Assembly: GCF_000245015.1 (NCBI RefSeq)
Contig: NZ_JH600070.1
Location: 3,616,684 to 3,680,683, forward strand
Length of the DNA stretch: 64,000 nucleotides
Reading direction: 5' to 3'
DNA from: Beggiatoa alba B18LD
GTDB lineage: Bacteria > Pseudomonadota > Gammaproteobacteria > Beggiatoales > Beggiatoaceae
Part shown: positions 3,671 through 9,041 of the stretch, in pieces
Layout of the letters: the number at the start of each line of letters is the position of its first letter
Position numbering within the stretch: the stretch's first letter is position 1
Program-made: the position numbers and the translations under genes
Notes under the pieces: model-generated
The model's input: only the letters and a program-made list of their open reading frames with translations
The model's database searches: none
Told to the model about the DNA's origin: nothing

Positions 3671-4954
3671 TTAAGCCCCGAATAATAAATTCGGTAAAAA
3701 TGTAGAAATCGCAGGAACATAAGTAACTAACATTAAGAAAGATAATAAAATCACTAACCAAGGCAAAGTAGCGTGCACAACTTGAAGAATTGTCATCTTC
3801 GTAATGCCTGCCGTTACAAATAGATTAAGCCCCACAGGTGGCGTAATCATCCCAATTTCCATATTCACGACCATGATAATGCCTAAATGAATTGGGTCTA
3901 TCCCCAAGGTTTGCGAAATGGGGAATAAAATCGGCGCGGTAATTAATAATAAACCCGTCGGTTCCATAAAATTCCCCCCAATCAACAGAATAATATTCAC
4001 AACTAACAAGAACATCCACGGCGATAAACCCCAACCGACAATCGATTCTGTAATCATTTGCGGAATACGCTCGGTAGTCAACACATGCGAGAATAACATC
4101 GCATTCATAATGATAAACATCAACATAATCGTGATTTTACCCGCATCAATTAACACATGGGGTACATCACGCATCCGCAAATCAGAATATACAAAAATCG
4201 CAATGATAAAGGCATAAACCGCAGCAACGGCAGCGGCTTCTGTCGGCGTAAATACCCCGCCATAAATCCCGCCAATAACAATCACAATCAGCAGTAAACC
4301 CCAACCCGCATCTAAGGTTGCTGAGACTAATTCTTTTAATGAAACACGTGGTAACTTAGGCAAATTATGTTTTCTTGCCATTACATACGCGCCGATAATC
4401 AGAAACAACGCTAATAACAACCCAGGAATAACCCCTGCCATAAACAAGCGTCCGACAGATACCTCAGTTACCGCTGCATAAACAATCATGACCAACGAAG
4501 GCGGAATTAAAATGCCCAATGTACCTGCCGTACAAACCATGCCCGCCGCCATCCGTTGCGGATATCCTGTAGAAACCATTGCACTGATAACAATAGAACC
4601 AATCGCCACCACTGTCGCAGGTGAAGAGCCAGACACTGCCGCGAATAAAGTACATGCCAAAATAGAAGCAATCCCTAACCCACCCCGAATAGAACCAACG
4701 CACGCAATCGCAAAACGAATTAAGCGTTTAGCAACCCCCCCCGTTGATAAAAAAGCCGATGATAAAATAAAGAAGGGAATCGCTAATAAAGAATAATGTT
4801 GCGTTGCTTCAAAAGCTTTTAAGGCTAAAGAGGCTAACGAATCGGTTGAAAAAAATAGAATGGTTAATACACTGGATAAGCCCAACGCGACCGCAATCGG
4901 CATTCCAATAATCATGAATAAAAGCAGTAAAATAAAAAGTGATGCTGTTGCCAT
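3671..4954 (-). CDS. dctM: TRAP transporter large permease subunit DctM
   Basis: A 427-aa, very hydrophobic protein with about twelve membrane segments, the usual size of DctM-type TRAP large subunits. Recognisable stretches are the early AIPFFILSSAFLSTGGVAKR region, the ASILACTLFAAVSGSSPATV motif and NMEIGMITPPVGLNLFV near the end. It forms the sodium-coupled translocation channel for organic acids (C4-dicarboxylates or related). It starts 2 nt after the dctQ stop and is the last gene of the dctP-dctQ-dctM operon, with a strong terminator behind it. Substrate cannot be decided from the sequence. Confidence 0.95.
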   Translation of the reverse strand: MATASLFILLLLFMIIGMPIAVALGLSSVLTILFFSTDSLASLALKAFEATQHYSLLAIPFFILSSAFLSTGGVAKRLIRFAIACVGSIRGGLGIASILACTLFAAVSGSSPATVVAIGSIVISAMVSTGYPQRMAAGMVCTAGTLGILIPPSLVMIVYAAVTEVSVGRLFMAGVIPGLLLALFLIIGAYVMARKHNLPKLPRVSLKELVSATLDAGWGLLLIVIVIGGIYGGVFTPTEAAAVAAVYAFIIAIFVYSDLRMRDVPHVLIDAGKITIMLMFIIMNAMLFSHVLTTERIPQMITESIVGWGLSPWMFLLVVNIILLIGGNFMEPTGLLLITAPILFPISQTLGIDPIHLGIIMVVNMEIGMITPPVGLNLFVTAGITKMTILQVVHATLPWLVILLSFLMLVTYVPAISTFLPNLLFGA

Positions 4955-4956
4955 TT

Positions 4957-5544
4957 TTAGTGCCCATCCGCTTTAGTCGTATCGGTTTCAGATTTTGTCT
5001 TAATAACTGTCTCGGCATCATCCACTTGAAACTGCTTCAACGCATCTGCTGCCTCATCCGCTAACATCTGCACCTGTGAACCAATTAAGAGCTTTACCCC
5101 TACTTGTAAAAACCGCGCGAATAGCAATAAAAAGCCTAAAGGTAAAATAAGATAGATAACCCATTGTTGTATTGGCAAATCCTCAGATTCATTGCCCAAG
5201 GTGTACATAATATCTAGGTAATTCCAAGCACCGACACCTAAAATACCGCAATAAATCAAGCAGCACAGAATGGCGAGCAGTCCGATAATACGCTGACCCA
5301 AGGGCGGAAATAATTTCACAATCGCATCAATGCCAATATGTGCATTAACCCGCACTCCGTAAGACATCCCAAACAGGACTAACCATGCAAATAAACTCGT
5401 GGTTAATTCCAACGCCCAGACAAAACCACTGTTAAAAACATAACGTGCAACCACATTTGCAAATGTAACCAATGTCATACTGGCTAATAAAAGTGCAATA
5501 AACCATTCTTCTAAACGGTTATACAATGCAGATAAAAACCACAT
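4957..5544 (-). CDS. dctQ: TRAP transporter small permease subunit DctQ
   Basis: A 195-aa protein with four membrane helices (about residues 14-34, 48-68, 86-108 and 130-150) and the DctQ-family features LASMTLVTFANVVARYVFN and the late LPLGFLLLFARFL. It pairs with DctM in the inner membrane. A good ribosome-binding sequence (AGGGGG) precedes the ATG. The C-terminal about 40 residues are charged and longer than in many DctQ proteins. The dctP gene lies 109 nt upstream. Confidence 0.93.
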   Translation of the reverse strand: MWFLSALYNRLEEWFIALLLASMTLVTFANVVARYVFNSGFVWALELTTSLFAWLVLFGMSYGVRVNAHIGIDAIVKLFPPLGQRIIGLLAILCCLIYCGILGVGAWNYLDIMYTLGNESEDLPIQQWVIYLILPLGFLLLFARFLQVGVKLLIGSQVQMLADEAADALKQFQVDDAETVIKTKSETDTTKADGH

Positions 5545-5653
5545 GATTGAACCCCCTAAAACCTAAAGCAAACAAGCCTTTAAGTGAGAAGATAAAATCT
5601 ACTACTTAAAAGCTTGTGAAATGAAAAAAGATAATATCAATCAACAGAATTGA

Positions 5654-6983
<1,330 letters not shown>

Positions 6984-7043: not shown

Positions 7044-7754
7044 TTATCGTGTGATTAGTTCATTATCAATATTCCAGCGATAGCCCATGCCATAAACGGT
7101 TTCTATCGCAACAAACTTGCTATCTACCGCCGCAAATTTTTTACGTATCCGTTTAATATGCGAGGTAATGGTACTGTCATCAACATTAACATTTGCCTCT
7201 TGCATCAGTTGTTCACGTTGGCGTACATAACCAGGAAAACGTGCGAGTGCATGGACTATCCAGAATTCAGTCAAGGTTAAATCAACAGGCACATTACGCC
7301 ACATAACCGTTAAACGATGCGGGTCTATGCGGAGTGAACCGCGTTCTATAACATTTTCAGCAGATGGCGGGGTTGCAAGGGCTTCTACACGGCGAAATAG
7401 TGCGGCAATCCGTGCTAATAAATGAGGCATACTGATATCTTTTGTCAAATAATCATCCGCCCCGAGTCGCAGACCTGACACCATGTCGAATTCGCTATCG
7501 CGTGCTGTCAGAAAAATGATAGGTAAATAATGAGACAATCCCCGTAATTCTCGACATAAATCAAAACCGCCTTCCACCTCGTCTTCTAGCATAATATCGA
7601 GCAAAACAAGTTCAGGAAGTCGCATCCGAAAAGCTTGTAATGCTTCACGTCGCGTTGAATACGTATTAACTTCATAGCCTTGTCTTCTCAAGACGGCTGC
7701 ATAATTTTCACGAATGGCTGGTTCATCTTCAACGATAGCGATACGCCGCCCCAT
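7044..7754 (-). CDS. Response regulator of the proteobacterial sortase system (PdsR-like, OmpR family)
   Basis: A 236-aa OmpR/PhoB-type regulator. The receiver domain (about 1-120) has the acidic pair E9-D10, phospho-acceptor D53 in LVLLDIML, T83 in FLTARDS and K105 in DYLTKDIS. The C-terminal winged helix (about 140-232) ends in the usual VYGMGYRWN. The receiver segments GGFDLCREL and SGLRLGADDYLTKDIS closely resemble the dedicated regulators that accompany class GN sortases (the PdsR family), and a class GN sortase is indeed next door, divergently transcribed. The partner histidine kinase (PdsS) that usually follows is absent here. GAGG precedes the ATG. Confidence 0.85.
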   Translation of the reverse strand: MGRRIAIVEDEPAIRENYAAVLRRQGYEVNTYSTRREALQAFRMRLPELVLLDIMLEDEVEGGFDLCRELRGLSHYLPIIFLTARDSEFDMVSGLRLGADDYLTKDISMPHLLARIAALFRRVEALATPPSAENVIERGSLRIDPHRLTVMWRNVPVDLTLTEFWIVHALARFPGYVRQREQLMQEANVNVDDSTITSHIKRIRKKFAAVDSKFVAIETVYGMGYRWNIDNELITR

Positions 7755-8020
7755 TATAAACCTCTTTATTTATAATCAATTGAGCTAGAAAGTTCATGAG
7801 ATATCTTAACTGAAAACTTGTTTTCTTTATAATAGCAAGCGATGCCAGCCAATAGGATGTTTCTTTCCGAATTCCATTTTTTTGCCACATTTTGCCCGTG
7901 TTTTGTCATAAGCTATCCTTAGCTTTGCCGTATTAATAGGGTTTAATACCTACAATACCGCAGACTACAGAAGCAATATCAAGGAGGGCATCTGTAGTGT
8001 ATCAATATCGACTGTATGAC
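7755..8020. other. Intergenic region between pdsR-like and sortase genes
   Basis: About 270 nt of non-coding sequence between divergent genes. It should hold the promoter of the response regulator and any activator sites for the sigma-54 promoter at 8021. I saw no clear inverted repeat suitable as an operator and no TGT-N10-ACA site. Confidence 0.5.
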
Positions 8021-8036
8021 TGGCAGGACTGTTGCT
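8021..8036 (+). promoter_or_regulatory. Sigma-54 promoter of the small membrane peptide/sortase operon
   Basis: TGGCAGGACTGTTGCT fits TGGCAYR-N4-TTGCW at nearly every key position, with GG and GC exactly ten bases apart. It is 68 nt upstream of the 46-codon reading frame that precedes the sortase. The match is as good as that of the nif promoters in this window. Confidence 0.7.
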
Positions 8037-8104
8037 TTATAGTTGTTTGACAAATCCTTTTTTTTGATTACCCCTTATTTTTAATTCATTTTTTGGAGTG
8101 TTTC

Positions 8105-8245
8105 ATGGACAGTGTAAAAACACAAAATACACAATCAGCGGCATTAAGTGATTTATTAAATTTCTTTGTAACCAGCCTATTAGCGGGTTTTGCCTCTGCA
8201 GTCGTGCTTGCGGGTATTGTCTTACTTATTTCGGCGGCAGGTTAA
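8105..8245 (+). CDS. 46-residue single-pass membrane peptide upstream of the sortase
   Basis: An unannotated short gene: ATG at 8105 with GGAG 7 nt upstream, 46 codons, stop TAA at 8243-8245. The first about 16 residues are polar (MDSVKTQNTQSAALSD) and the rest is one hydrophobic helix (about residues 18-45, ending VLLISAAG). It has no cysteine, no LPXTG-like sorting signal and no basic tail, so it is not an obvious sortase substrate. It lies between a sigma-54 promoter and the class GN sortase gene (96 nt downstream), so both are probably one transcript. It may be a membrane partner of the sortase or a regulatory peptide; function is unknown. Confidence 0.65.
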   Translation: MDSVKTQNTQSAALSDLLNFFVTSLLAGFASAVVLAGIVLLISAAG

Positions 8246-8341
8246 GTAATGAGTTGAATCAAGCGTTAATAGAATAATAAAACGTAAAAAAATACGGGCA
8301 TAAGCAAGTTATTCATGAGTTTTTAACAACACAGTGGTGCT

Positions 8342-8932
8342 ATGAGAATCTATTTAGGATGGGGTAGTACGCTTATTGGTTTGTTAGTGGGGTTTAGTGT
8401 ATGGCAGGTTAGCCAACAGTACATGACTTATCCACAGGCATGGCTCACACAGGGATTAATGCAAACCGCATGGGCGCGTACTCAAGCAAGCGGACGTTAT
8501 GTCAAACCTTGGCCATGGGCTGAAACGTGGCCATTAGCTCGTTTGTCTATTCCTCAGTTAAATTTCGAGCAAATTGTCTTAGCAAAAGCGTCCAATGATA
8601 CGTTAGCTTTAGGACATTTAAGTAGCACTGTGTTACCCGGTGAAGCAGGTAACAGCGTCATCAGTGTTTATCATCGCAATTATGCACGCTACATGCAGGC
8701 GTTAAAAAATAGCGATGAGTTAGTTTTAGAAGCCCCACAAAATGGACAATGGCGTTATCGCGTTTCTGCTATTTACGTTGTAGATAAAACCGATACCCGT
8801 TTTCTTGCGCCGAGTATGCACCGCCGTTTAACGATTATTAGTTGTTATGCATGTAGTAATGGACAAGATAATTTACGTCATGTTGTGGTTGCCGATGAAA
8901 TTGAAAAGCGCATGACCGCAAGCGCATTCTAA
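8342..8932 (+). CDS. Class GN sortase
   Basis: A 196-aa sortase with an N-terminal membrane anchor (about residues 3-22). The catalytic set is visible: His111 in SVYHRNYARYM, Cys168 in TIISCYACSN and Arg179 in DNLRHVVVADE. The region LPGEAGNSVISVYH corresponds to the GN-x-I-x-GH core of sortases. Class GN sortases are found in Gram-negative proteobacteria and usually act on a single dedicated LPXTG-bearing surface protein encoded beside them. No such target, and no OmpA-like PdsO gene, occurs next to this copy. The proline that often follows the Cys-Tyr pair is replaced by Ala. A terminator-like repeat hairpin follows. Confidence 0.88.
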   Translation: MRIYLGWGSTLIGLLVGFSVWQVSQQYMTYPQAWLTQGLMQTAWARTQASGRYVKPWPWAETWPLARLSIPQLNFEQIVLAKASNDTLALGHLSSTVLPGEAGNSVISVYHRNYARYMQALKNSDELVLEAPQNGQWRYRVSAIYVVDKTDTRFLAPSMHRRLTIISCYACSNGQDNLRHVVVADEIEKRMTASAF

Positions 8933-8944
8933 GCCTCTCAAGAC

Positions 8945-8982
8945 AAAGACCTGCGAGGTTTTCAAAGCCTAGCAGGTCTTTT
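8945..8982. repeat. AGACCTGC-type palindromic repeat, acting as bidirectional terminator
   Basis: Inverted arms AAAGACCTGCGAGG and CCTAGCAGGTCTTT (one mismatch) with a short loop, followed by seven T. Near-identical hairpins with a CTAGG or TTAGG centre lie at 43665, 51070, 51294 and 60842. Here it separates the sortase and the convergent ETF-QO gene, so it likely ends both transcripts. A degraded end sequence (ACTTACCGAATTTAG, 9002-9016) resembles the family's outer terminus. Confidence 0.75.
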
Positions 8983-9041
8983 TTTGTCTTTTTTAAGAAA
9001 AACTTACCGAATTTAGATTTTCTAATCTTTCTTTTAAAATC

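What the first reader, a model, noticed from the sequence alone, without database searches (positions are those of the whole stretch)
8021..8932. Sigma-54-driven operon of a 46-residue membrane peptide and a class GN sortase without its usual substrate
A strong -24/-12 site (8021-8036), a small well-translated gene (8105-8245) and a class GN sortase lie in order, divergent from a PdsR-type regulator. The usual locus has a target protein with a C-terminal LPXTG-like signal, PdsO and a kinase; none is here. The peptide has a polar head and one helix and may be a sortase partner, chaperone or regulator.
Basis: partly seen in the sequence, partly recalled or inferred. Interest (0 to 1): 0.72.

Follow-up and report, generated by a model that had tools for sequence, protein, structure and literature searches.

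The report
Sortase operon with peptide, no target
In a family of giant sulfur bacteria, a two-component system that elsewhere goes with a cell-surface-anchoring enzyme and its cargo appears to control one operon made of a conserved 46-residue membrane peptide and a sortase that is partly losing its catalytic residues, so an anchoring system seems to have been turned to another use.

Summary
In detail: a -24/-12 site (8021-8036), a real 46-codon gene (8105-8245; dN/dS 0.11), a GN-like sortase (8342-8932) and a divergent true PdsR. The peptide is in 20 of 42 family genomes, just upstream of the sortase in 18 of the 19 that have both; outside the family only three weak hits inside longer frames. 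(1) The kinase PdsS exists, intact, elsewhere in the genome; in the sister species it follows pdsR. (2) A 33-bp direct-repeat element (7879-7911) is a candidate PdsR operator: at the peptide/sortase locus in 14 of 17 PdsR+ and 0 of 14 PdsR- genomes, including six genomes whose pdsR lies elsewhere. (3) The sortase is changing: 9 of 31 family copies lost a catalytic residue, in others (the window's included) the histidine comes one residue late, and 25 of 27 non-redundant copies have a CxxC at the catalytic cysteine. No PDS target, PdsO or LPXTG-type protein was found by profile. One genome keeps peptide, operator and PdsRS without a detectable sortase. Best reading: a target-less, repurposed dedicated sortase system whose regulated output is peptide plus sortase. 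Function is inferred, not shown.

The parts
7044..7754 (-). pdsR, response regulator of the dedicated sortase system, divergent from the operon
   Evidence: TIGR03787 382.9 bits, over cut-off 335.7; PdsR and PdsS over cut-off in the same 17 of 42 family genomes
7879..7911 (+). candidate PdsR operator TTTTTGCCACATTTTGCCCGTGTTTTGTCATAA: TGCC/TGCC/TGTC direct repeats 10 and 11 bp apart
   Evidence: at the peptide/sortase locus in 14 of 17 PdsR+ and 0 of 14 PdsR- genomes that have sortase or peptide; binding not tested
8021..8036 (+). sigma-54-type -24/-12 element TGGCAGGACTGTTGCT
   Evidence: best site before the gene, 0 of 200 shuffles as good; comparable site in 11 of 18 peptide loci tested and 0 of 11 peptide-less sortase loci
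8105..8245 (+). 46-residue peptide: polar head with one Lys, then one long hydrophobic helix; no charged residue after residue 16
   Evidence: AlphaFold2 (two-row alignment) single helix 2-45, mean pLDDT 86.9
8342..8932 (+). GN-like sortase: N-terminal hydrophobic helix, Cys168, Arg179, displaced His111, extra Cys171 (SCYAC)
   Evidence: dN/dS 0.02 against the sister species
8947..8985 (+). terminator-like stem AGACCTGC/GCAGGTCT plus T run that would end the peptide-sortase transcript
   Evidence: read by eye from the sequence printed; not listed by the pattern scan, whose loops are limited to 3-8 bases

Best explanation
A target-less, repurposed variant of the proteobacterial dedicated sortase (PDS) system. 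PdsS (encoded elsewhere) phosphorylates PdsR; PdsR binds the direct-repeat operator at 7879-7911 and controls one operon, peptide plus sortase; a sigma-54-type promoter at 8021-8036 gives the peptide a second input. The VIT/VWA target that lies directly before the sortase in other gammaproteobacteria is gone and the peptide gene sits there. The peptide is an inner-membrane, N-in/C-out single helix that most likely packs against the sortase's anchor helix (or PdsS). The sortase domain is kept by selection in this genus, but in this family catalysis is no longer strictly required: the catalytic His is slipped or replaced in many copies and the Cys has become part of a CxxC. Shown: genes, conservation, co-distribution, operator correlation, residue changes, no target found by the profiles used. 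Inferred: PdsR binding, promoter use, topology, helix packing, loss of transpeptidation, what the complex senses or does.
For: Peptide directly before the sortase in 18 of 19 genomes that have both, the 19th (G021) split over two contig ends; peptide dN/dS 0.06-0.35 in 7 of 8 pairs, the 8th saturated; sortase dN/dS 0.02 in the window's genus. PdsR and PdsS over cut-off in the same 17 of 42 genomes. Operator with up to 3 mismatches at the locus in 14 of 17 PdsR+ against 0 of 14 PdsR- genomes, Fisher p 3.5e-6; this includes six genomes whose pdsR lies elsewhere (G006, G015, G019, G021, G022, G025), with no comparable copy around those pdsR genes. In six GN loci outside the family the gene directly before the sortase is a 690-750-aa protein with a sorting-signal-like tail; the two scanned are TIGR03788 over cut-off. 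In the own genome: no TIGR03788 over cut-off, no PdsO, no LPXTG-like tail among the 8 TIGR01167 hits. Catalytic residue lost in 9 of 31 family sortases, 0 of 6 outside; CxxC in 25 of 27 non-redundant family sortases, 0 of 6 outside.
Against: The catalytic Cys and Arg are still nearly invariant (26 of 27 each) and 21 of 27 have a His in the aligned column, so many copies may be active. The sortase model was poor (pLDDT 49), so the geometry is unknown. 11 of 30 sortase genomes lack the peptide (one, G024, is cut at a contig end), and one peptide genome lacks a detectable sortase. In G008 and G022 another genomic site matches the operator pattern better than the one at the locus. G012 has a contig-edge fragment of a PdsS-like kinase (200.8 bits) without PdsR, so the exact pairing holds for over-cut-off matches only. 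The target search by profile can miss an unusual sorting signal. Genomes are mostly drafts. No operator or promoter was tested by experiment, and rpoN was not searched for.
Confidence: 0.45

Rival explanations
1. The sortase is an active transpeptidase with an unrecognised substrate elsewhere in the genome; the peptide is a helper or chaperone in the membrane.
For: Cys168 and Arg179 kept and the gene under strong selection in the window's genus; sortases of the four g20 genomes that have one keep H, C and R; 19 of 20 peptide genomes have a sortase.
Against: No target by TIGR03788 or TIGR01167 in the own genome and none in the window by a pattern for tail signals; triad broken in 9 of 31 family copies.
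Confidence: 0.3
2. The peptide is a regulator of the kinase PdsS (feedback or signal relay), and the sortase is a passenger.
For: G019 keeps peptide, operator (3 mismatches), PdsR and PdsS but has no detectable sortase; the peptide is in the candidate PdsR regulon; small membrane regulators of kinases are known (recalled).
Against: 7 of 20 peptide genomes have neither PdsR nor PdsS over cut-off but do have the sortase.
Confidence: 0.15
3. The peptide is a reduced target or pseudosubstrate: it replaces the VIT/VWA gene and its head (K-P-x-T-Q before a helix) imitates the sorting signal.
For: Same position directly before the sortase as the target in other GN loci; a P-x-T in the head of 6 of 17 tabulated peptides.
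Against: Profile comparison found no relation (probability 0.3 percent); the P is not conserved and is absent in the window's peptide; no signal peptide, no basic tail, and the positive charge lies before the helix, which predicts the motif inside the cell.
Confidence: 0.07
4. Chance ORF next to an ordinary decaying sortase gene.
For: Short ORF; sortase looks relaxed in the g17 pair (dN/dS 1.15 on few synonymous changes; one in-frame TGA in G031).
Against: Peptide E-values 2e-11 to 1.4e-23 in 13 genera of the family and purifying selection.
Confidence: 0.03

Closest known systems
Proteobacterial dedicated sortase (PDS) system: class GN sortase TIGR03784, PdsR TIGR03787, PdsS TIGR03785, target TIGR03788, PdsO TIGR03789
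   Same: true PdsR and PdsS; sortase of the nearest lineage; in G046, outside the family, the order is pdsR, target, sortase with pdsR divergent, as here with the peptide in the target's place
   Different: the gene before the sortase is a 46-residue membrane peptide, not a VIT/VWA target; no PdsO found; kinase unlinked in this genome; sortase below the GN cut-off with CxxC and displaced His; sigma-54-type site before the peptide
Class D sortase (NF033746 / NF058671); solved relative 2ln7
   Same: sortase domain by sequence, TCYPF-like cysteine region
   Different: scores far below the class D cut-offs (54 against 165, 56 against 140); His position and partners differ
VIT/VWA proteins with PEP-CTERM-like or OmpA-like tails in other family members
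   Same: relatives of the PDS target body
   Different: 28 kb from the sortase in G003 and on other contigs in the others read; tails are not LPXTG-like by eye; none of the full type in this genome
Small inner-membrane regulators of sensor kinases (MgrB, SafA; recalled)
   Same: short single-helix protein in the candidate regulon of a two-component system
   Different: no sequence relation tested; the partner gene here is a sortase

Membership tests
Class GN sortase (TIGR03784) | score above the curated cut-off | tested here: not met
   113.2 against 158.25 bits; two family relatives 140.8 and 115.6; a GN sortase outside the family (G085) 201.8
Class GN sortase (TIGR03784) | His, Cys, Arg catalytic triad | tested here: inconclusive
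   Cys168 and Arg179 present; His111 one residue later than in the six GN sortases outside the family
Class GN sortase (TIGR03784) | cognate VIT/VWA target with C-terminal sorting signal | tested here: not met
   only VWA-region hits of 58.2 and 43.7 bits in the genome (cut-off 551.65), tails without signal
PDS system | PdsR | tested here: met
   382.9 bits, cut-off 335.7
PDS system | PdsS kinase | tested here: met
   670 bits, cut-off 612.2; 706-aa ORF, but unlinked
PDS system | PdsO | tested here: not met
   14 hits, best 81.8 bits, cut-off 152.2, best ones to the C-terminal part of the profile
Sigma-54 promoter | -24 GG / -12 GC element with fixed spacing | tested here: met
Sigma-54 promoter | use by RpoN with an enhancer-binding protein | not testable with these tools
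   needs transcript mapping; rpoN and activators were not searched for
OmpR/PhoB-type operator | direct repeats about 10-11 bp apart | tested here: met
   read from the sequence; presence follows pdsR
OmpR/PhoB-type operator | bound by the regulator | not testable with these tools
   needs a binding assay
LPXTG-type sorting substrate (the peptide) | signal peptide, motif, helix, basic tail | tested here: not met
   no basic tail, no second hydrophobic segment; no profile relation to GN target tails

The most novel reading that the evidence does not exclude
In Beggiatoaceae the sortase domain has been turned from a transpeptidase into a non-catalytic, possibly thiol-switched (CxxC) membrane subunit that works with a dedicated 46-residue peptide under a one-operon two-component system: a pseudo-sortase signalling or envelope-sensing module.
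Probability: 0.25. Interest if true: 0.8.

Novelty: new variant of a known kind. Interest (0 to 1): 0.6.

Why it matters
The role of sortases in Gram-negative bacteria is described as unknown in a paper of which I read passages (PMC10581121). A lineage that keeps the dedicated regulator pair, a candidate operator and a new membrane peptide, while dropping the target and loosening the active site, says the system may do something other than anchor a protein. It also gives a precise handle: an operator whose presence follows pdsR, a one-operon candidate regulon, and two small genes that can be deleted.

Tried and rejected
Reduced-target idea for the peptide: tested by profile comparison and charge pattern, not supported. 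LPXTG substrates by TIGR01167 in the two genus genomes: 8 hits in the own genome, one over cut-off; all 8 read: the over-cut-off one is an N-terminal helix of a ZipA-like protein, five others are inside proteins, two (L151, L156) are C-terminal helices with basic ends but no LPXTG-like motif (names by eye); the profile rings in all 14 control genomes. PdsO hits are OmpA-type matches. AlphaFold of the sortase with a four-row alignment was too poor to use, so no fold search was run. The second operator-like site in G022 (C2:24416, one mismatch) lies before an unrelated 431-aa gene; the extra G008 (2 mismatches) and G000 (3 mismatches) sites lie in coding sequence by my reading and were taken as chance. 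The peptide-profile hits outside the family (G055, G093, G400) lie in frames of 318, 140 and 872 codons and were taken as chance. Assembly error as the reason for the moved kinase: not excluded by reads, but pdsS lies away from pdsR in 7 of 17 genomes.

Rows dropped or missing before counts: one search left out four near-duplicates (G001, G027, G035b, G035a). One search tested 17 peptide-sortase loci plus G019; it left out G021 (start not found by the script) and the peptide-linked copy of G035; of the peptide-less loci, the G024 and G021 sortase contig ends were left out; L007/L008, L004/L005, L015/L016 and L018/L021 are near relatives, so the loci are not independent. In one search the G024 site (2 mismatches, at a contig end) is counted as absent from the locus; G011 and G029 have weaker copies (23 of 33 letters), and so has PdsR-less G017 (23 of 33 letters about 200 bases before its sortase), which the 3-mismatch rule counts as absent. 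The operator was found in these same loci, so 14/17 against 0/14 is not from an independent set. In one search the label test for lost residues compared only with the outside group and says nothing on the number of losses; the number is my reading of the tree. The 6 of 17 P-x-T count lacks G021, G027 and G035.

Full report
What is there. The window is part of a 4.27-Mb genome in 3 contigs. The family it belongs to has 42 held genomes in 25 genera.

The peptide is real. A profile of 17 rows finds it in 20 of 42 family genomes, in 13 genera (E 2e-11 to 1.4e-23), with only two weak hits among the 53 other genomes of the same search; a class sample of 369 genomes gives the window, one family member and one weak hit inside an 872-codon frame. 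dN/dS is 0.06-0.35 in seven of eight pairs; synonymous sites are saturated in the eighth. It has a short polar head with a Lys or Arg (17 of 17 tabulated) and then an uncharged hydrophobic stretch to the end; G027 reads on for some residues with an Arg. AlphaFold2 gives one helix. By the positive-inside rule (established knowledge) the head would be cytoplasmic.

Which genes go together. Of 42 genomes: 12 have sortase, peptide, PdsR and PdsS; 7 sortase and peptide; 4 sortase, PdsR and PdsS (one, G024, cut at a contig end); 7 sortase only; 1 peptide, PdsR and PdsS without detectable sortase (G019); 11 none of them. PdsR and PdsS over cut-off coincide exactly (17 of 42); G012 has in addition a contig-edge fragment of a PdsS-like kinase without PdsR. 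Peptide and sortase are associated (19, 1, 11, 11; p 0.0017), peptide and PdsR too (13, 7, 4, 18; p 0.004). G037 and, by near-identity, the second copy of G035 carry what looks like a decayed peptide gene before the sortase (local score 44 against a best shuffled score of 42).

The kinase is not missing. In the sister genome G001 pdsS follows pdsR directly; in the window's genome a full 706-aa pdsS lies at C2:346419-348497, 3.3 Mb away along the contig or about 1 Mb if the contig is circular. Only the gene itself, and a 106-bp stretch elsewhere, matches the sister locus. pdsS lies away from pdsR in 7 of 17 genomes.

The candidate PdsR operator. Between pdsR and the peptide lies TTTTTGCCACATTTTGCCCGTGTTTTGTCATAA (7879-7911), with TGCC, TGCC and TGTC 10 and 11 bp apart, the spacing of OmpR/PhoB-type sites (recalled). 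It is kept in genomes whose sortases share about half of their residues with the window's. A search of 42 genomes with up to 3 mismatches gave 25 sites; the reversed control pattern gave 2. Fourteen of the 25 lie at the peptide or sortase locus, one in each of 14 PdsR+ genomes; none of the 14 PdsR- genomes that have sortase or peptide has one there (p 3.5e-6). In 11 of the 14 it is the only site; G000, G008 and G022 have one more each, and in G008 and G022 the other site matches better. In six genomes whose pdsR lies elsewhere (G006, G015, G019, G021, G022, G025) the site is at the peptide or sortase and no copy with 23 or more of 33 letters lies around pdsR, which points to the operon as the controlled unit. 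In G019 it stands before the lone peptide. The element was discovered in these same loci, so the test is not independent, and binding is inferred.

The sigma-54-type site. A strong site stands before the peptide in 11 of 18 tested loci (at most 1 of 200 shuffles as good in each); three more are weak (p 0.015-0.045), four have none. None of 11 peptide-less sortases has a strong one, nor the six outside targets (best p 0.035). The spacer is unusually conserved (AAGACT in several) and the site is partly palindromic, so another regulator's operator cannot be excluded. PdsR is of the OmpR type, which is not expected to activate sigma-54 (established knowledge), so a separate activator would be needed.

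The missing target. In six GN loci outside the family (G085, G074, G083, G056, G055, G046) the gene directly before the sortase encodes a 690-750-aa protein; two were scanned and are TIGR03788 over cut-off, the other four are alike by eye. Five of the six tails read [LM][PA]xTA, the sixth (G056) is aberrant. The own genome has no TIGR03788 protein (best 58.2 bits against 551.65), no PdsO, and no LPXTG-like tail among its 8 TIGR01167 hits. Over the family 2 of 42 genomes have a TIGR03788 match over cut-off and about twenty more come near, but the tails I could read end in OmpA-like domains (L099-L107, L132, L133) or PEP-CTERM-like signals (L128-L131); these names are by eye, and L098 is cut by its contig end. 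That vault-type proteins carry different sorting tails in different bacteria, and that the dedicated Gram-negative sortase TIGR03784 goes with an LPXTG tail, is in print (PMC3237569, passages).

The sortase itself. The six outside GN sortases all have the His of HRDTHF, the Cys of TCYPF (TCFPF or TCWPF in two) and the Arg. In 31 family copies the His is replaced by R, N, S or P in six (G037 and its near-copy G035b, G022, G023, G021, G015), the Cys by Asn in one (G029) and the Arg by Cys in two (G002, G035a): 9 of 31. On the tree I read five to seven separate losses; G022, G015 and G021 sit in one weakly supported group. In many others, the window's included, the His comes one residue later than in the outside members and in the best solved relative. 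In 27 non-redundant copies the His column ranks 80th of 190 in conservation while Cys and Arg are each 26 of 27; a second Cys at +3 is present in 25 of 27 and is Phe in all six outside copies. The gene is under strong selection in the window's genus (dN/dS 0.02), but apparently not in the g17 pair that has neither peptide nor PdsRS (1.15, few synonymous changes).

Reading. The simplest account is a PDS system that lost its target in the ancestor of this family, gained the peptide in the target's place, and now uses the sortase domain with the peptide for something that tolerates loss of catalysis. Which partner the peptide touches is not settled: 19 of 20 peptide genomes have the sortase, 13 of 20 have PdsRS. 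An active sortase with an unseen substrate remains a serious rival. Literature: the listings (open-licence PMC only; one search listed 20 of 56 papers, 5 of 6, 13 of 14) showed no paper devoted to PdsR or PdsS with a sortase, to a natural family of inactive sortases, or to a sortase in Beggiatoaceae. One review (PMC12114352, passages) says that in Shewanella algae pdsS and pdsO have been tied to membrane integrity and beta-lactam resistance; the paper it cites is not held. PMC10581121 (passages) calls GN sortases poorly described.

Noticed in passing
L099-L107 (e.g. G003:C1:2953250-2955016), L132, L133: VIT/VWA proteins related to the PDS target but with an OmpA-like C-terminal domain (by eye) in place of a sorting signal, in several family genomes, not next to the sortase.
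   Followed up: partly
L128-L131 (G018, G039, G012, G010): VIT/VWA proteins with VPEP/APEP-type tails (PEP-CTERM-like, by eye), with another conserved gene just upstream on the same strand in three of the four; probably exosortase-linked.
   Followed up: no
G022:C2:24416-24445 (L190): A second near-perfect copy of the candidate PdsR operator, before an unrelated 431-aa gene.
   Followed up: partly
L109:8907-11027 against L108:12471-14591: pdsS appears to have moved as a single gene between the two species of this genus.
   Followed up: partly
window 3671-6661: TRAP transporter DctP-DctQ-DctM next to pdsR; dctQ/dctM-like genes (by eye) also lie next to the pdsRS pair of G006 (L122).
   Followed up: no
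G037:C19 and G035:C152: Near-identical sortase loci with a decayed peptide in two genomes of different genera; possible recent transfer or binning error.
   Followed up: no
G012:C62:1-480: Contig-edge fragment of a PdsS-like kinase (200.8 bits) in a genome where no PdsR or sortase was found.
   Followed up: no
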